Source: Bacteroidales bacterium
GTDB lineage: Bacteria; Bacteroidota; Bacteroidia; Bacteroidales; UBA932
DNA: 64,000 nucleotides
Reading direction: 5' to 3'
Assembly (NCBI GenBank): GCA_017554335.1
Contig: JAFZIO010000032.1
Span: 19,127-83,126 of the forward strand
Shown: in pieces, positions 43,462-49,858 of the stretch
How positions within the stretch are numbered: position 1 is the first letter of the stretch
How the letters are laid out: every line of letters starts with the position of its first letter
Program-made: the position numbers and the translations under genes
The notes under the pieces: generated by a model
Told to the model about the DNA's origin: nothing
Databases searched by the model: none
What the model saw: the letters and a program-made list of their open reading frames with translations, nothing else

Positions 43462-45561
43462 TCAGGATATATTGCTGTAGTCCCTGATATCGTATTTGCC
43501 TTTTCTCAGTTCCCGCAGCAAAACAAGGTTTTGAGGCCTGTCCAGGCCGGGGTCTGCATCCAGTACTTTCTGGGCGCAGGAACGGGCTTCGTCCAGCATG
43601 GCACCGTCCCTGAGCAGGGATGCTATGTGGAGCTCGATGGGCATACCGCTCTGCTGGGTTCCCTCCAGGTCGCCGGGGCCGCGCATCTTCATGTCCTTTT
43701 CCGCTATCTCGAAGCCGTCTTCCGTTGCGCACATAAGTTCCAGGCGCTCCTGGGCGTCTTTTCCGGTCTTGGGATCCTTGACCAGGATACAATAGGATTT
43801 CTCGGCCCCGCGGCCCACCCTGCCCCTGAGCTGATGCAGCTGGCTGAGGCCGAAACGCTGGGCGCTGCGAATCACCATCACGCTGGCGTTGGGCACGTCT
43901 ACGCCCACCTCGATAACTGTAGTGGAAACCAGGATATGGGCCCGTCCCTCAACGAAAGCCTTCATATTGAAAAGCTTCTGTTCGTTGTTCTGCTGCCCGT
44001 GGACTATAGCCACTTTGTACCCCTCTTCGAGCGGGAAGGCCTTCACTATCTCTTCGTATCCCTGCTCCACATTGCTGATATCTTCCATCTTTTCGTTGAT
44101 GAAGATCATGGGATATACCACGAACACCTGGCGTCCCTTCGCTATTTCTTCACGCATGAAGCGGTACATGGCAGGCAGGCGGTTCTGCCCTATCAGCATG
44201 GTCTGTACGGGTTTGCGGCCGGGAGGCATTTCGTCGATTACGGACAGGTCCAGATCTCCGTAGAAGGTCATGGCAAGGGTGCGGGGAATAGGAGTCGCGG
44301 TCATCACGAGAACGTGCGGAGGAATACCGTCAGGGCCCTTGCTCCAGAGGGCGGCACGCTGGCTTACGCCGAAGCGGTGCTGCTCGTCTATGACGGCGAG
44401 CCCGAGGGCGCGGTACTTCACGGGCTCCTCTATGAGGGCGTGTGTTCCCACGATCAGCTGAATGCTGCCGTCGGCCAGCCCCTCCAGTATCGGCTTGCGC
44501 TCCTTCTTCGTAGTGCTGCCGGTCAGCAGGGCGCAGGTGACGCCGGTGGGCGCCAGGTACTTCTGTATATTCGCATAGTGCTGCTGCGCAAGCACTTCCG
44601 TAGGAGCCATGATGCAGGCCTGATAGCCGTTTCCTATGGCGATGAGGCAGCTCAGCACCGCTACCATCGTCTTGCCTGAGCCCACGTCTCCCTGCAGCAG
44701 ACGGTTCATCTGGGAGCCGCCGGAGAGGTCGGCCCGTATCTCCTTTATCACCCTCTGCTGCGCCCCCGTGAGAGCGTACGGGAGGGCGTTGTAGCAGGCG
44801 TGGAAGGCCGGCCCAACGTGAGGCATCACCAGCCCGTTAGCCGCCCTGCTGCGCACGTACTTCTGCTTCAACAGGCTGAGCTGCAGGTAGAAGAGCTCTT
44901 CGAACTTCAGCCGGCGGGTGGCAGCCGCGAGCGCGCTCATATCGGCAGGAAAATGTATGTTCTGGAGGGCCCACGGGAGCGACGGCAGGCCGTATTTAGC
45001 GAGGATGTATTCCGGCAGGGTCTCCTGCACCTCCGGCAGGCAGAGCGCCAGCGCCGCACGCTCCAGCTTGCACATAAGCTTCCCGGTGATGCCGCCGGCC
45101 TTCAGCTTCTCCGTGCTGGGGTAGACGCCCGTAAGCGTCCCCTTCGCCGACGGATCGGACTGCGGCGCGTCGACCTCCGGATGCACTATGTTGATGCGTC
45201 CGTTGAACGACTGCGGCTTGCCGAAAAAGAGGAATGTGGCTCCGGGAACCAGGCGGTCGAAATTCCACTTGACACCTTTGAAGAACACCATCTCCATGCG
45301 CCCGGTGCCATCTTCCACGATGACGCTGAGGTGCTTGATATTGATGAGGTTGCGGCTCACCACCCTCCCCTGCACCTGAACGTAGGCAAGGTCCGGGGTA
45401 ACGGAGACTATGGGGGTGATGCTGCTGCGGTCTATGTAGCGGAAGGGGTAAAAATGGATGAGATCCTCCAGCGTATTGATGCCGAGCTCGCGCTTGATGA
45501 GGGCCGCACGCTTGGGCCCCACCCCGGGCAGGAACTGTATGTCACTCTGGAGCTCGCTCAT
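43462..45561 (-). CDS. recG: ATP-dependent DNA helicase RecG
   Basis: A branch-migrating helicase for stalled forks and Holliday junctions, 699 residues. An N-terminal wedge/OB domain (IQFLPGVGPKRAALIKRELG, VQVQGRVVSRN) is followed by the helicase domains with LLQGDVGSGKT (motif I), VIDEQHRFGVSQR (motif II), VMTATPIPRTLAMT (motif III), HQLRGRVGRG (motif VI) and the C-terminal FEIAEKDMKMRGPGDLEGTQQSG. An open frame extends about 296 codons further upstream, but ATG 45561 is correct: it begins the RecG domain and overlaps the anSME stop (ATGA). Confidence 0.96.
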   Translation of the reverse strand: MSELQSDIQFLPGVGPKRAALIKRELGINTLEDLIHFYPFRYIDRSSITPIVSVTPDLAYVQVQGRVVSRNLINIKHLSVIVEDGTGRMEMVFFKGVKWNFDRLVPGATFLFFGKPQSFNGRINIVHPEVDAPQSDPSAKGTLTGVYPSTEKLKAGGITGKLMCKLERAALALCLPEVQETLPEYILAKYGLPSLPWALQNIHFPADMSALAAATRRLKFEELFYLQLSLLKQKYVRSRAANGLVMPHVGPAFHACYNALPYALTGAQQRVIKEIRADLSGGSQMNRLLQGDVGSGKTMVAVLSCLIAIGNGYQACIMAPTEVLAQQHYANIQKYLAPTGVTCALLTGSTTKKERKPILEGLADGSIQLIVGTHALIEEPVKYRALGLAVIDEQHRFGVSQRAALWSKGPDGIPPHVLVMTATPIPRTLAMTFYGDLDLSVIDEMPPGRKPVQTMLIGQNRLPAMYRFMREEIAKGRQVFVVYPMIFINEKMEDISNVEQGYEEIVKAFPLEEGYKVAIVHGQQNNEQKLFNMKAFVEGRAHILVSTTVIEVGVDVPNASVMVIRSAQRFGLSQLHQLRGRVGRGAEKSYCILVKDPKTGKDAQERLELMCATEDGFEIAEKDMKMRGPGDLEGTQQSGMPIELHIASLLRDGAMLDEARSCAQKVLDADPGLDRPQNLVLLRELRKGKYDIRDYSNIS

Positions 45562-46820
45562 TGCTGCATCATTATTAATGCCGGAGCCTTTCCCTGCTCC
45601 AGCAGTTCTTTCATCGTCTGCATGCCTTTGGCGCTGTGCTTGAAGAACATGCTGTATCCTTCGCACAGGGCGTTCAAGCCGGTCTGACCGCTGTCGGTGG
45701 TATTGAAGCGATGCTTGGGGCAGCCGCCGTGGCACAGGCTCCAGCACTCGCAGCGCAGGCACTTGCGCGGCAAAGAATTGCGTTTGTCTATGCCGAAGCG
45801 TATCTGGGCTTCCGAGCTCATCATTTCCGTAAGCGAGTCGCGGTATATATTGCCAAGCAGGTACTTGGGATACACGAAATGGTCGCAGCTGTACACGTCT
45901 CCGTTGTGCTCGACCACCGCATTGCCGCCGCAGGTCTCCGCAAAGCTGCAGGTCCCCGGCATCACGCCGCACCAGTTGGCGAGGGTGCAGTCGAAAAAGT
46001 TCACGAACACCCGGCCTACGTCGTGCTTCACCCAGTAATCGTAGATGTCGCAGATGAAGCGGCCGAAGCCGACAGGACTGACCGACCATGGGGCCAGGGT
46101 GGCGCCGGGCTCCGACGGGTCCACGATATGAGGTCGCGCGTGTTTGTCCGGCTTTCCGTTCCTGACAGGCCAGACAACGTGCTCGACCACAGGAGAAAAC
46201 TGAATAAAAGCGCTCCCCAGGCCTTTCAGGAACTGATACACCTGAAGGCCCCGACCTTCCGAGGCGCTGTTGATGGTGGCCATCAGGTTGTACTCTGCAC
46301 CTGCGTCGTACAGCTTCCTGATTCCTTTGACCACACGTTCCAGGCTGGGCTGGCCTCCCTTGTCCTTGCGGTAACGGTCGTGCACTTCCGGCGGGCCGTC
46401 CACCGAAACGCCGAGCAGGAAATTGTTGTCCTTGAAGAAGTGCGCCCATTCATCAGTAATGAGCGTAGCGTTGGTCTGGAGTGTGTTGTGGATTGTCTTT
46501 TCGCCCTTGTATTTCTGCTGATACTCAACGGCCTTCCTGTAGAAATCAAGGCCCAGTACAAGCGGCTCGCCGCCATGCCAGTTGAAAGTTATTTCCTTCG
46601 TTTCGCAAGCCTCGATGTACTGCTTCACGTAGCGTTCCAGCTCCTCCAGCGTCATTCTCGGCTCCCTGCCGCCGTAAATCTCCGATTTGTCCAGATAGTA
46701 GCAATACGCACAGTCCAGGTTACACAGCGAACCCGCAGGCTTCAACATAAGGTTGAAAGCCAGCGGGCCGCTTATTCGCCGGGCGTCGTCCAGCGTAATT
46801 GTGTCCTTTACAGTACGCAT
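45558..46820 (-). CDS. Anaerobic sulfatase-maturating radical SAM enzyme
   Basis: A radical SAM protein of 420 residues that converts an active-site Cys or Ser of sulfatases to formylglycine. The [4Fe-4S]-SAM motif is CNLDCAYCYY (about residues 33-42), followed by TFNWHGGEP. A C-terminal SPASM-type region contains CGVMPGTC, CGGNAVVEHNGDVYSCDHFV and RCECWSLCHGGCPKHR for two auxiliary clusters. No sulfatase gene is present in this window. The ATG at 46820 is chosen because a -7 box lies 6 bases upstream. It is coupled to recG. Confidence 0.9.
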   Translation of the reverse strand: MRTVKDTITLDDARRISGPLAFNLMLKPAGSLCNLDCAYCYYLDKSEIYGGREPRMTLEELERYVKQYIEACETKEITFNWHGGEPLVLGLDFYRKAVEYQQKYKGEKTIHNTLQTNATLITDEWAHFFKDNNFLLGVSVDGPPEVHDRYRKDKGGQPSLERVVKGIRKLYDAGAEYNLMATINSASEGRGLQVYQFLKGLGSAFIQFSPVVEHVVWPVRNGKPDKHARPHIVDPSEPGATLAPWSVSPVGFGRFICDIYDYWVKHDVGRVFVNFFDCTLANWCGVMPGTCSFAETCGGNAVVEHNGDVYSCDHFVYPKYLLGNIYRDSLTEMMSSEAQIRFGIDKRNSLPRKCLRCECWSLCHGGCPKHRFNTTDSGQTGLNALCEGYSMFFKHSAKGMQTMKELLEQGKAPALIMMQQ

Positions 46821-46826
46821 AGGACA

Positions 46827-46834
46827 CAAATATA
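46827..46834 (-). promoter_or_regulatory. -7 box TATATTTG of anSME-recG
   Basis: An exact match 6 bases before the ATG at 46820, only 7 bases past the trpB stop. Confidence 0.6.
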
Positions 46835-46840
46835 ATAAAA

Positions 46841-48205
46841 TTACTGGTTCAAAGCGTCGGCGCTCTTGATGAACTTGGCCAGATCTTCCTCAGAAACGTG
46901 ATAGTTCTGCATCTCGCCGGAGAAATACTGGTCGTAGGCGCTCATGTCCACGAAGCCGTGGCCGGAGAGGTTGAACAGGATGGTCTTCTGCTCGCCGGTC
47001 TCCTTGCACTTGAGAGCCTCGGTGATTGTGGCGGCAATGGCGTGGCAGCTCTCGGGAGCGGGGATAATGCCCTCCGTGCGGGCGAAGAGCACGCCGGCCT
47101 TGAAGGAGTCAAGCTGCTCGATATCAACGGCTTCCATGTATCCGTCCTTCATCAGCTGGGAGAGGATGACGCCGGCGCCATGGTAGCGCAGACCGCCTGC
47201 ATGGATGGCGGCGGGCTTGAAGGTGTGGCCCAGGGTGTACATAGGGAGGAGCGGGGTCATGCCGGACTCGTCGCCGAAGTCATACTCGAACTTGCCGCGG
47301 GTAAGCTTGGGGCAGGAGAATGGCTCGGCAGCGATGAAGCGGGTCTTCTTGCCGTCCTGGATGTTGTGGCGCATGAACGGCAGGGCGATGCCGCAGAAGT
47401 TGGAGCCGCCGCCGAAGCAGGCGATCACGATGTCGGGGTACTCCCCTGCGAGCGCCATCTGCTTCTCCGCCTCAAGGCCGATGACGGTCTGATGCAGGCA
47501 CACGTGGTTGAGCACGGAGCCGAGAGCGTACTTGCAGTTGGGGGTGCTGACGGCCAGCTCGATGGCCTCGGAGATGGCGCAACCCAGGGAGCCCTGGTCG
47601 TTGGGGTTGCGGGTAATGATATCCTTACCTGCACGGGTACTCATTGAAGGAGAAGGAGTTACGGTAGCGCCGAAGGCCTGCATGATGGAGCGGCGGAAAG
47701 GCTTCTGCTCATAGCTCACCTTAACCATATAAACTGCACACTCGATGCCGAACTTCTTGGTTGCATAGCTGAGTGCACCTCCCCACTGGCCTGCACCGGT
47801 CTCGGTGGTAAGATTGGTGATGCCCTGCTCCTTGGCGTAATAGGCCTGGGCGATGGCGGAATTCAGCTTGTGGCTGCCGGCGGGCGACACACTCTCGTTC
47901 TTGAAGTAGATGTGGGCGGGGGTGCCGAGGGCCTTCTCCAGCTCGTAGGCACGCACAAGCGGGGTGCAGCGGTAGGCCGCATACTGCTCGCGTACTTCTT
48001 CGGGGATGGGAATCCATTCATCCGTCTGGTTGAGTTCCTGGTCGGCGCAGGCCTTGCAGAAGATGGGATAGAGATCTTCGGGCTTCAACGGCTGCTTGGT
48101 TGCAGGGTGCAGGAAAGGCTGGGGCTTGTTGGGCATGACAGCCTGGATGTTGAAGTAATGGGTAGGAATCTCGGATTCCGGAAGGATGAATTTTTTCTGT
48201 TTCAT
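46841..48205 (-). CDS. trpB: Tryptophan synthase beta chain, TrpB2 type
   Basis: A PLP enzyme that condenses indole with serine. The 454-residue length and the N-terminal extension (residues 1-75, with FLHPATKQPLKPEDLYPIFC) mark the TrpB2 subgroup, which often works without TrpA. The PLP lysine is K113 in SPAGSHKLNSAIAQ, the ETGAGQWGGALSYA loop is present, and the phosphate is bound by ACFGGGSNFCGIAL. No trpA or other trp gene is nearby, so it may salvage indole. Upstream lie a Trp-rich leader peptide and a terminator, suggesting control by charged tRNA-Trp. Confidence 0.93.
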   Translation of the reverse strand: MKQKKFILPESEIPTHYFNIQAVMPNKPQPFLHPATKQPLKPEDLYPIFCKACADQELNQTDEWIPIPEEVREQYAAYRCTPLVRAYELEKALGTPAHIYFKNESVSPAGSHKLNSAIAQAYYAKEQGITNLTTETGAGQWGGALSYATKKFGIECAVYMVKVSYEQKPFRRSIMQAFGATVTPSPSMSTRAGKDIITRNPNDQGSLGCAISEAIELAVSTPNCKYALGSVLNHVCLHQTVIGLEAEKQMALAGEYPDIVIACFGGGSNFCGIALPFMRHNIQDGKKTRFIAAEPFSCPKLTRGKFEYDFGDESGMTPLLPMYTLGHTFKPAAIHAGGLRYHGAGVILSQLMKDGYMEAVDIEQLDSFKAGVLFARTEGIIPAPESCHAIAATITEALKCKETGEQKTILFNLSGHGFVDMSAYDQYFSGEMQNYHVSEEDLAKFIKSADALNQ

Positions 48206-48234: not shown

Positions 48235-48271
48235 CAAAAAATAAGGGCCGCCCTTGTTCGGACAGCCCCTT
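48235..48271 (-). terminator. Candidate attenuator terminator ahead of trpB
   Basis: On the minus strand AAGGGgCTGTCC pairs with GGGCGGCCCTT (11 pairs including two G-U, one bulged G), followed at once by ATTTTTTG. It lies between the leader peptide stop (48314) and the trpB ATG (48205), that is, inside the trpB leader and not at a gene end. Confidence 0.75.
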
Positions 48272-48281
48272 TGTATCATGC

Positions 48282-48300
48282 AGCAGGCGCCTGGCCTGCT
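48282..48300 (-). promoter_or_regulatory. Upstream leader hairpin of the trpB attenuator
   Basis: AGCAGGC and GCCTGCT pair (7 bp, 5-base loop) between the leader-peptide stop and the terminator. A further hairpin, GTCTGA/TCAGAC (about 48345-48321), overlaps the codons just after the two Trp codons. Mutually exclusive pairing is likely but was not computed. Confidence 0.5.
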
Positions 48301-48313
48301 ATTGTTCACATAC

Positions 48314-48379
48314 TCAACGAGTCTGACCGAAAATATCGCTCAGACGCCACCAGAAGAATATGCTGCTTGTTCCAATCAT
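48314..48379 (-). CDS. Trp-Trp leader peptide ahead of trpB
   Basis: A 21-codon open frame that reads MIGTSSIFFWWRLSDI and ends in QTR before TGA. It has two consecutive TGG (Trp) codons at positions 10 and 11. Its ATG lies 7 bases after an exact -7 box, so it would be the first thing translated on the trpB transcript. It is followed by hairpins and an intrinsic terminator before trpB. This is the layout of a ribosome-mediated tryptophan attenuator. The peptide itself has no expected function beyond sensing charged tRNA-Trp. Confidence 0.72.
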   Translation of the reverse strand: MIGTSSIFFWWRLSDIFGQTR

Positions 48380-48386
48380 TCTTCTG

Positions 48387-48394
48387 CAAATATA
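48387..48394 (-). promoter_or_regulatory. -7 box TATATTTG of the trpB leader
   Basis: An exact TAnnTTTG match that places the transcript start at or just before the leader-peptide ATG, giving a trpB leader of about 175 bases. Confidence 0.6.
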
Positions 48395-48454
48395 GAAAGA
48401 ATTTTAATAATGCAATACTTCGTGCGCAAAAAATTCTTAACTTAGAGGCAAGAA

Positions 48455-49858
48455 ATGGACAGACGACTATTTTTAAAAGAAGGTGCAGCGGGGCTGGCAG
48501 CCCTGGCGCTTAGTTCAAGCACAGCTCTGGCGGGCGGAAAGGCCGCGGGAGCACAGGAATCCCTCTCCTCTCGTATACGCAAGGCAGGACATTATGATGT
48601 AGTAGTGTGCGGCGGCGGGCCCGCGGGCTTTATTGCAGCAATTGCAGCCGCCAGGCAGGGAGCCAAAGTGGCTATAGTCGAACGCTACTCCTTCCTGGGC
48701 GGCATGGCCACGATGGGCTACGTGGCGCCCATCAGCGAATTCGCATTCAACGGGGAGCGCGTCATCGGCGGCATCCCGTGGGAGTTCATCCAGCGGCTGG
48801 AGGCCCTCGGAGGCGCCTGCGTACAATGGCCCAAGGGCAACGTCGACTTCGACATAGAGCTCTATAAACTCTGCGCCCAGAGGATGGTGCTGGAGGCCGG
48901 CGTGCAACTGTTCATGCGCTCGTCCCTCATAGGCTGCGAGATGGAAGGCAAACGCCTCTGCAGTGTAATCGTAGAAAACAAGAACGGCCTCGAGGCGCTC
49001 GAGGCGGAGCGTTTCATAGACGCCACCGGCGACGGAGACCTGGCCTTCATGGCCGGAGTGCCTATGCAGGCGAACCCCGAAAAGGAGCTGCAGCCGTCAT
49101 CCTACTGCTTCGTGCTTTCCGGCGTAGACACCGACAGCGAGCTGCTGCGCCGCTACATGTACCACAGCGGCAAAAAGGGAGGCAGCCAGTGCACGCCCGT
49201 CCGGGACAAGTTGCTGAAACTGAAGGCCGACGGAGCCGACCTGCCGGATTTCGGAGGCCCCTGGTTCAACAGCGTGATGCATAAGGGCAGCGTGGCCGTC
49301 AACATCACCCGGGCCGCCGCCGACTCCACCGACAACCGCGACTTCACGGCCGCCGAGTGCCGCCTGCGGGAAGATATTTACAAGTTTACCGACGCCCTGC
49401 GGCGCCACGTCCCCGAATTCAAAGACTGCTACGTGGCCTCTACCGCCCCACAGGCCGGCATACGCGAATCCCGCCGCATACTCGGCGTGCACACGGTCAC
49501 TGCCGAAGAATACGTGGAAGGCGTAAAGTACCCCGACCGCGTATCCCGCGGGGCGCACCAAATAGACATCCACGCCAGCAAGGGCTCCGGCCAGGTACTC
49601 ATCAAGCTGAAGCAGGCGGCGTACGTCCCCTACAGGGCGCTTATTGCCGACGGGTTCCCCAACCTGCTGGTGGCCGGCCGCTGCATTTCCGCCGACCGCA
49701 AGGCCCTGGCCTCCCTGCGCGTACAGGCCAGCTGCATGGGCATAGGGCAGGCGGCAGGAGTGGCCGCAGCGCAGAGCTTGCGCGAGGGGCATGCGGTGCA
49801 GGACATAGAAACCGAAACCCTCGTATCCACTTTACAATCACTAGGTGCAATAATCTAA
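48455..49858 (+). CDS. FAD-dependent oxidoreductase with Tat-like signal
   Basis: A 467-residue FAD_oxidored-family protein. The N terminus MDRRLFLKEGAAGLAALALS carries a twin-arginine type signal (RRLFLK). The dinucleotide-binding motif is YDVVVCGGGPAGFIAAIAAARQGAKVAIVE (about 48-77), then FIDATGDGDLAFMAG (about 188-202) and a C-terminal FPNLLVAGRCISADRKALASLR typical of the family. The substrate is unknown; relatives sit in carbohydrate-degradation loci. It heads a unit with an aldose epimerase, cstA and a glycosyltransferase. A TAACTTAG sequence 9 bases before the ATG is a possible weak -7 box. Confidence 0.83.
   Translation: MDRRLFLKEGAAGLAALALSSSTALAGGKAAGAQESLSSRIRKAGHYDVVVCGGGPAGFIAAIAAARQGAKVAIVERYSFLGGMATMGYVAPISEFAFNGERVIGGIPWEFIQRLEALGGACVQWPKGNVDFDIELYKLCAQRMVLEAGVQLFMRSSLIGCEMEGKRLCSVIVENKNGLEALEAERFIDATGDGDLAFMAGVPMQANPEKELQPSSYCFVLSGVDTDSELLRRYMYHSGKKGGSQCTPVRDKLLKLKADGADLPDFGGPWFNSVMHKGSVAVNITRAAADSTDNRDFTAAECRLREDIYKFTDALRRHVPEFKDCYVASTAPQAGIRESRRILGVHTVTAEEYVEGVKYPDRVSRGAHQIDIHASKGSGQVLIKLKQAAYVPYRALIADGFPNLLVAGRCISADRKALASLRVQASCMGIGQAAGVAAAQSLREGHAVQDIETETLVSTLQSLGAII

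What the first reader, a model, noticed from the sequence alone, without database searches (positions are those of the whole stretch)
48235..48394. Tryptophan attenuator with a Trp-Trp leader peptide ahead of a lone trpB2 gene
Seen: a -7 box TATATTTG, 7 bases later an ATG opening a 21-codon frame with tandem TGG codons (MIGTSSIFFWWRLSDI...), a hairpin GTCTGA/TCAGAC overlapping the codons after the Trp pair, a second hairpin AGCAGGC/GCCTGCT, then an 11-pair terminator with six T, all before the trpB ATG. Known: this is the plan of ribosome-mediated attenuation in proteobacterial trp operons. Inference: in this Bacteroidales the indole-using TrpB2 is controlled by charged tRNA-Trp, independent of any trp operon. 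The leader peptide would itself be translated almost leaderlessly, so ribosome loading starts at the very 5' end of the RNA.
Basis: partly seen in the sequence, partly recalled or inferred. Interest (0 to 1): 0.82.

Follow-up and report, generated by a model that had tools for sequence, protein, structure and literature searches.

The report
Tryptophan attenuator controlling orphan trpB2 gene
A short RNA leader with two neighbouring tryptophan codons and a switchable stop signal sits in front of a lone tryptophan-making gene in a gut bacterium that seems to have lost the rest of the pathway, so the cell probably turns the gene on only when tryptophan runs short; the control plan is known, its placement here is new.

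Summary
In detail: on the minus strand a -7 box, 7 nt, a 21-codon WW leader, an 11-pair terminator with six T, and trpB2. Of 97 distinct trpB2 upstreams from related Bacteroidales, 78 have a WW short ORF against 1.2% of shuffles. The AGCAGGC hairpin is a variable spacer. This is ribosome-mediated transcription attenuation, not a new kind: Rfam has Bacteroid-trp (RF01692), which passes one of two trp-operon leaders tried and misses the window. New: the target is an orphan trpB2; 27 of 27 attenuated genomes examined lack trpA, trpC and above-cut-off trpB1, and the three unattenuated ones have trpA hits (underpowered once kinship is allowed for); 15 of 20 trp-operon regions of relatives show WW leaders; 44 of 53 type A and B leaders start 6-9 nt after the -7 box. 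Likely tRNA-Trp-controlled indole salvage. No expression data were available.

The parts
48413..48415 (-). TTG, possible -33 element, 18 nt upstream of the -7 box
   Evidence: sequence; TTTG at about -33 of Bacteroides promoters as stated in PMC7366714 (passage seen)
48387..48394 (-). -7 box TATATTTG (Bacteroidetes TAnnTTTG)
   Evidence: sequence; consensus in PMC7366714 (passage)
48314..48379 (-). leader ORF MIGTSSIFFWWRLSDIFGQTR with stop; starts 7 nt after the -7 box
   Evidence: WW short ORFs upstream of 78 of 97 distinct trpB2
48347..48352 (-). tandem TGG TGG, sensing codons
   Evidence: tandem-codon count
48340..48345 (-). segment 1 (GTCTGA), would be masked by a ribosome stalled at the Trp codons
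   Evidence: stem 1:2, 92.4% of cells paired in type B
48321..48326 (-). segment 2, partner of segment 1 (TCAGAC)
48323..48331 (-). antiterminator 5' strand (TTCGGTCAG)
   Evidence: covariation, 0/500 shuffles; fold of the stalled state
48282..48300 (-). spacer hairpin AGCAGGC..GCCTGCT; not conserved in sequence, spacer hairpins of -8 kcal/mol or better in 6 of 11 type B leaders
48257..48265 (-). antiterminator 3' strand = segment 3 (CTGTCCGAA: terminator 5' arm plus loop)
48236..48270 (-). intrinsic terminator: 11 pairs, 6-nt loop, A and six T
46841..48205 (-). trpB2, 454 aa
   Evidence: NF009057 698 bits and TIGR01415 596 bits, both over cut-off; TIGR00263 149 bits, under its cut-off of 392; best solved relatives by sequence 6hul, 4qys, 6hte; HKxN and ETGAGQWG kept in the alignment to 6hul

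Best explanation
Ribosome-mediated transcription attenuation of an orphan trpB2 by the charge of tRNA-Trp. With Trp-tRNA scarce, the ribosome on the near-leaderless 21-codon ORF stalls at TGG TGG and covers segment 1; segment 2 (UUCGGUCAG) pairs with the 5' arm and loop of the terminator (CUGUCCGAA), the terminator cannot form and trpB2 is transcribed. With Trp-tRNA plentiful, the ribosome reaches the stop and covers segment 2 (or leaves and 1:2 forms), and the terminator forms 30 nt before trpB2. The stated confidence is for this control. Further inference, held less firmly: because the genome shows no trpA, trpC or above-cut-off trpB1, TrpB2 makes Trp from scavenged indole and serine. Shown here: anatomy, conservation, covariation, association with absence of trp genes. 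Inferred: transcription start, ribosome positions, response to Trp, TrpB2 substrate.
For: WW short ORF in 78 of 97 distinct trpB2 upstreams vs 1.2% of shuffles. Antiterminator in the window's type (11 leaders): 92.0% of cells paired vs 84.1 +/- 1.7 shuffled, 0/500; slid versions at most 50%; hand-anchored strand-swap control reached in 1 of 5000. 69 non-redundant leaders: own duplex mean -18.9 vs -13.9 kcal/mol, 0/20,000 permutations overall and within type. Folding of 6 chosen leaders, window included: antiterminator in 6 of 6 when segment 1 is masked and RNAP is just past the loop; terminator in 6 of 6 when the ribosome is at the stop. Target: TrpB2 family; indole salvage by a TrpB2 is the subject of Hiyama et al. 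2014 (only its title in a reference list seen). trpA, trpC and above-cut-off trpB1 absent from 27 of 27 WW genomes among the 30 examined; the three without WW are the three with trpA hits, one a fragment. Wider set, TrpB2 at least 78% identical: trpA in 0 of 46 WW vs 9 of 14 non-WW genomes, Fisher 1.4e-7, not corrected for kinship.
Against: No expression data. With the whole leader made, the terminator is the minimum-energy fold in 6 of 6 even when segment 1 is masked (state B), so antitermination must be kinetic; these folds ignore the RNA hidden in RNA polymerase. In a per-sequence shuffle test the window's own antiterminator was not significant (z +0.1, p 0.52; 30 of 73 leaders had z below -2). 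The 1:2 stem in type B does not exceed the strand-swap control (1403/5000). The trpA association rests on few independent changes: 4 well-supported independent pairs, 2-3 in the expected direction, none against, the rest without difference, p 0.25. At 69% identity and above, 2 of 57 WW genomes do have trpA (G121, G225), and 36 of 52 non-WW genomes lack it. The own genome is only 87.6% complete, and some relatives less (60-100%).
Confidence: 0.9

Rival explanations
1. Nascent-peptide arrest (TnaC-like): the leader peptide in the tunnel senses free L-Trp or indole, rather than tRNA charge.
For: TrpB2's presumed substrate and product are indole and Trp; Trp residues are conserved in the peptide.
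Against: Residues before WW vary in number and kind, though Asn is frequent; segment 1 lies at nt 2-7 after the Trp codons, as expected for codon stalling; TGG is the only tandem codon found in most of these ORFs.
Confidence: 0.05
2. Ordinary terminator plus chance ORF: the hairpin ends an upstream or antisense transcript and the ORF is not translated.
For: In some relatives (e.g. L005, L026, L029) a terminator-like hairpin stands before trpB2 with no WW leader.
Against: WW ORF frequency 78/97 vs 1.2%; covarying antiterminator; -7 box directly before the leader.
Confidence: 0.02
3. The attenuator works as described, but TrpB2 does something other than indole salvage (e.g. uses O-phosphoserine, or acts with an unrecognised indole-making enzyme). 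This rivals only the indole step, not the control.
For: PMC1854888 (passages) reports that the sole TrpB2o of Pyrococcus horikoshii was taken to suggest another, unidentified function; the own genome has a tryptophanase-like lyase, 315 bits, below the family cut-off of 826.
Against: A Trp-specific attenuator in genomes without trpA, trpC and above-cut-off trpB1 argues that the product is Trp.
Confidence: 0.2

Closest known systems
Bacteroid-trp leader RNA (Rfam RF01692; listed in Weinberg et al. 2010, PMC2864571, table row seen)
   Same: Bacteroidetes, leader of tryptophan genes by its Rfam description; trp-operon leader L157 (61.4 bits) and trpB2 leader L070 (49.9) pass its cut-off of 49
   Different: The window's leader is not found by it even at E 10; 1 of 20 trpB2 loci passes, L077 (36.7) and the trp-operon leader L154 (40.7) fall short; target is a lone trpB2; 44 of 53 type A and B leaders start 6-9 nt after the -7 box
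Classical proteobacterial trp attenuator (E. coli trpL; recalled, not tested)
   Same: Tandem Trp codons, 1:2, 2:3 and 3:4 pairings, stop codon near segment 2
   Different: Unrelated sequence; target a single trp gene; in type A leaders the antiterminator pairs with the terminator loop and 3' arm instead of the 5' arm
Leaderless cysteine-sensing attenuators of mycobacteria (Canestrari et al. 2020, known here only from a passage and reference in PMC9031893)
   Same: Leader ORF at or near the 5' end senses an amino acid through its codons
   Different: Other amino acid, other phylum; the passage speaks of translation of downstream genes, here there is a terminator

Membership tests
Ribosome-mediated transcription attenuator | leader ORF with tandem codons of the regulated amino acid | tested here: met
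Ribosome-mediated transcription attenuator | intrinsic terminator between leader ORF and gene | tested here: met
Ribosome-mediated transcription attenuator | mutually exclusive, evolutionarily kept antiterminator | tested here: met
   window alone not significant
Ribosome-mediated transcription attenuator | read-through depends on amino acid / tRNA charge | not testable with these tools
   needs expression data
Bacteroid-trp RF01692 | match to the Rfam covariance model | tested here: not met
   no match at gathering or at E up to 10
Bacteroid-trp RF01692 | homology to Bacteroidetes trp-operon leaders | tested here: inconclusive
   model R1 from 18 trp-operon leaders misses the window site at E 1 but finds the 16 type C trpB2 leaders given to it at E about 1e-9 or better; model R2 from 11 type B leaders (window included) finds 16 trp-operon leaders below E 1e-3, best 6e-9, while a place without a WW leader (L005) reaches 0.002
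TrpB2 (TrpB-like, TIGR01415/NF009057) | match over curated cut-off | tested here: met
   596 bits (cut-off 519) and 698 bits (cut-off 366); TIGR00263 below its cut-off
TrpB2 (TrpB-like, TIGR01415/NF009057) | makes Trp from indole and serine | not testable with these tools
   motifs kept in the alignment to 6hul; activity not tested

The most novel reading that the evidence does not exclude
Regulatory hand-over: in a lineage of gut Bacteroidales the phylum's trp-operon attenuator passed, more than once and in several sequence versions, to trpB2 when the trp operon was lost, turning an accessory TrpB into a Trp-sensing indole-salvage pathway of one enzyme. The leader meanwhile became near-leaderless, and the antiterminator was rewired (loop plus 3' arm in type A, 5' arm plus loop in type B).
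Probability: 0.45. Interest if true: 0.68.

Novelty: new variant of a known kind. Interest (0 to 1): 0.52.

Why it matters
What orphan TrpB2 genes are for was left open in PMC1854888 (2007; passages). A Trp-specific attenuator on trpB2, found with trpA in only 2 of 57 cases, says that the product that counts is tryptophan, probably from scavenged indole. My inference: such species might be scored as plain Trp auxotrophs by pathway reconstructions, yet live on indole released by neighbours. The leader's sequence versions also give a natural series for studying how an attenuator is rewired while its logic is kept.

Tried and rejected
Rejected: the AGCAGGC hairpin as antiterminator or pause hairpin (not conserved in sequence). 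Rejected: the 5' hairpin over the start codon as a general feature (z -2.6 in the window, between -0.1 and +1.1 in the other 10 type B leaders). Rejected: a further Trp attenuator of this kind in the own genome (R2: trpB2 site E 2e-23, next best E 0.01; the three next sites were read and look to my eye like coding sequence or plain terminators; R1: best E 2.8; both on an 87.6% complete genome). Rejected: trpB2 as the first gene of a conserved operon. A sulfatase-maturase gene starts 11 nt after it, but no relative of that gene (E 1e-20, over 150 residues) was found in the other 109 loci of L001-L110 (downstream flank 0.2 to 3 kb, at least 1.2 kb in 104 of 110). Not settled: whether type B is homologous to trp-operon leaders; the trpA association after correction for kinship.

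Rows dropped: L068 and L090 (contig ends), 11 near-duplicates, G296 (upstream cut). L079 and L101 are probably chance ORFs; they are included in the 78 of 97 but were left out and of the spacing count. Of 197 genomes with TrpB2, upstreams of 110 were fetched (30 loci and 80); the more distant 87 were not.

Full report
1. The observation. On the minus strand of 48235-48394 the sequence reads TATATTTG (48394-48387), CAGAAGA, ATG (48379) of a 21-codon ORF MIGTSSIFFWWRLSDIFGQTR with TGA at 48316-48314, GTCTGA/TCAGAC, a variable stretch with AGCAGGC/GCCTGCT, and an 11-pair terminator (48270-48243) followed by A and six T, 30 nt before the ATG (48205) of a 454-residue protein. That protein passes TIGR01415 and NF009057 (TrpB-like, the TrpB2 group) and falls far below the cut-off of TIGR00263, ordinary TrpB; its best solved relatives by sequence are 6hul, 4qys and 6hte, and it keeps the SHK.N and ETGAGQWG motifs in the alignment to 6hul (that these are the PLP-lysine and catalytic-glutamate regions is recalled). 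The leader folds better than all 200 shuffles, z -4.8.

2. Conservation. A search of 299 genomes of the family gave TrpB2 in 197; 30 loci came back, and 80 more named loci came from GTDB genomes, many titled as Bacteroidales MAGs from ruminants (best 80 of 584). Of these 110, 108 had at least 170 nt upstream and 97 were distinct at 95%. 78 of 97 have a short ORF with tandem TGG, 73 with a called terminator after it; the same ORF rule is met by 115 of 9,700 shuffled upstreams. The rule asks for TGGTGG, so conservation of the codons inside the hits is circular; the comparison with shuffles and with all other tandem codons (TGG 75, AAC 20, then 8 or fewer, ATG starts only) is not. Of the 19 without a leader, 14 are loci whose TrpB2 is only 75-79% identical; the other five (L005, L026, L084, L086, L087) are 81-93%.

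3. The missing piece: the antiterminator. Aligning the leaders shows three main sequence versions: A (43 leaders, e.g. WWRTCSSKL), B (11, the window's), C (17, WWWRLQL and the like), and 7 others. In version B, UUCCGGUCAGGC or like letters after the Trp codons pair with GGCUGUCCGGAA of the terminator. On the 11-row alignment this helix (8 pairs) has 92.0% of cells paired against 84.1 +/- 1.7 in shuffles (0/500), while every slid version has at most 50%; pair 23:103 appears as C-G, U-A and A-U, pair 22:104 as U-A and A-U. A hand-anchored count agrees (97 of 121 cells, reached by 1 of 5000 strand swaps), but there the 1:2 stem does not exceed its swaps (61 of 66, 1403 of 5000). In version A, CUGUAAGUC pairs with GACUUACAG, that is with the loop and 3' arm of the terminator; L004, L021 and L038 change both sides (CUGUGAGC with GCUCACAG). 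Across 69 non-redundant leaders of all versions and of trp operons, each leader's segment pairs with its own terminator at a mean of -18.9 kcal/mol against -13.9 with others; no permutation of 20,000 reaches the observed sum, overall or within versions. The window ranks 4 of 69 there. In an earlier per-sequence shuffle test, 30 of 73 leaders had z below -2 and the window had z +0.1, so the case for the window rests on its relatives.

4. Geometry. Segment 1 lies at nt 2-7 after the last Trp codon, the antiterminator strand at nt 16-24, the stop at nt 31-33. With segment 1 masked and RNA polymerase just past the terminator loop, the minimum-energy fold is the antiterminator in 6 of 6 leaders chosen; with the ribosome at the stop, or with no ribosome, it is the terminator in 6 of 6; but once the whole leader is made the terminator wins even with segment 1 masked (6 of 6). 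The switch therefore has to be kinetic, as I recall it to be in E. coli.

5. Near-leaderless start. With a loose -7 box, 37 of 42 version A leaders start 6-9 nt and 7 of 11 version B leaders 6-8 nt after the box; in version C 7 of 14 start 19-25 nt after it, 4 start at 7 and 3 have no box. In Bacteroides thetaiotaomicron most mRNAs have a 5' UTR of 23 nt and only about 3.7% of 5' UTRs are under 10 nt (PMC7366714, passage). So ribosome loading at the very 5' end is likely, but the start of transcription is inferred.

6. Where the attenuator sits. Of the 30 genomes first examined, 27 have the WW leader on trpB2 and none of these has trpA, trpC or an above-cut-off trpB1; the three without it (G245, G251, G149) are exactly the three with trpA hits, that of G149 being a fragment without trpC or trpB1 (control genomes over the cut-off 14 of 14 for trpA and trpC, 13 of 14 for trpB1). 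With 80 more upstreams and the trpA search of 299 genomes, genomes whose TrpB2 is at least 78% identical give WW: 0 of 46 with trpA; no WW: 9 of 14 with trpA; at 69% and above 2 of 57 against 16 of 52 (G296 left out, two fragments counted as trpA). Kinship is not removed by Fisher's test; on a tree of 50 TrpB2 there are 4 well-supported independent pairs, 2-3 in the expected direction and none against, p 0.25. In 20 trp-operon regions of trpA-bearing genomes, 8 show a WW leader with an exact -7 box and 7 more show one under looser rules (the place directly before trpB1 was checked by coordinates only for G245 and G251); of the other five, four are cut by contig ends. G121 has a WW leader in both places. 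Of 30 trpB1 loci across the order, 10 have a WW leader with a terminator, and a model of trp-operon leaders finds matches in 32 of 296 genomes of the phylum; all 30 of those fetched have a WW-type short ORF. The divergent FAD-oxidoreductase gene of the window (48455-49858) is also found opposite to trpB2 in L012, L016, L052 and L058, all version B (L058 a near-copy of L016), so part of version B shares one locus.

7. What is known. Rfam RF01692, Bacteroid-trp, described as 'Bacteroidete tryptophan peptide leader RNA', matches the trp-operon leader L157 and the trpB2 leader L070 above its cut-off; the trp-operon leader L154 and the trpB2 leader L077 fall short of it; the window and 19 of the 20 trpB2 loci tried have no match at the cut-off. 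It comes from Weinberg et al. 2010 (PMC2864571; passages only, its table row seen). The model of 18 trp-operon leaders finds 16 version C trpB2 leaders at E about 1e-9 or better and 13 of 16 version A leaders at 1.1e-3 or better; of the 11 version B leaders the best reaches 0.008 and several, the window's included, are not listed at E 1. The model of version B finds 16 trp-operon leaders below E 1e-3 (best 6e-9), while chance-like matches begin near 0.002. Homology of the window's leader to the trp-operon leaders is therefore likely but not settled. Clues to leader-peptide attenuation before amino-acid operons are reported in Flavobacterium psychrophilum (PMC9723704, passage). Ten library searches (several listings were capped, e.g. 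6 of 64 and 8 of 22) listed no paper that I recognised as describing attenuation of trpB2; most subscription papers are not held, among them Lopatovskaya et al. 2010.

8. Verdict. A genuine tryptophan attenuator, ordinary in logic, a new variant in target, sequence and 5' end. Steps shown: anatomy, conservation, covariation, association with missing trp genes. Steps inferred: transcription start, stalling, response to Trp, indole as substrate.

Noticed in passing
window 45558-46829 (-): An anaerobic sulfatase-maturase gene (TIGR03942) starts 11 nt after the trpB2 stop, so it may be co-transcribed under the attenuator in this genome; no relative of it was found near trpB2 in the other loci.
   Followed up: partly
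L005, L026, L029, L079, L084, L086 upstream of trpB2: Here trpB2 follows a gene ending in a conserved membrane segment (like GFWSMFQSVGWNN; succinate dehydrogenase cytochrome b by memory, not searched): trpB2 seems to change place along with its control.
   Followed up: no
TrpB2 tree: Attenuator versions A, B and C are mixed among close relatives (5 changes on the tree among the rows labelled A, B or C), as if leader and gene were exchanged separately.
   Followed up: partly
L077:2889-2987: A long inverted repeat between the attenuator terminator and trpB2: both strands hit the same miRNA precursor model below its cut-off; perhaps a small repeat element.
   Followed up: no
L013:4260-4323 (-): SAM-II riboswitch (long loop) above its cut-off.
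   Followed up: no
L012, L036, L051, L052 between leader and terminator: Spacer hairpins with CCGGT letters look like extra copies of the antiterminator strand and might compete for the terminator arm.
   Followed up: no
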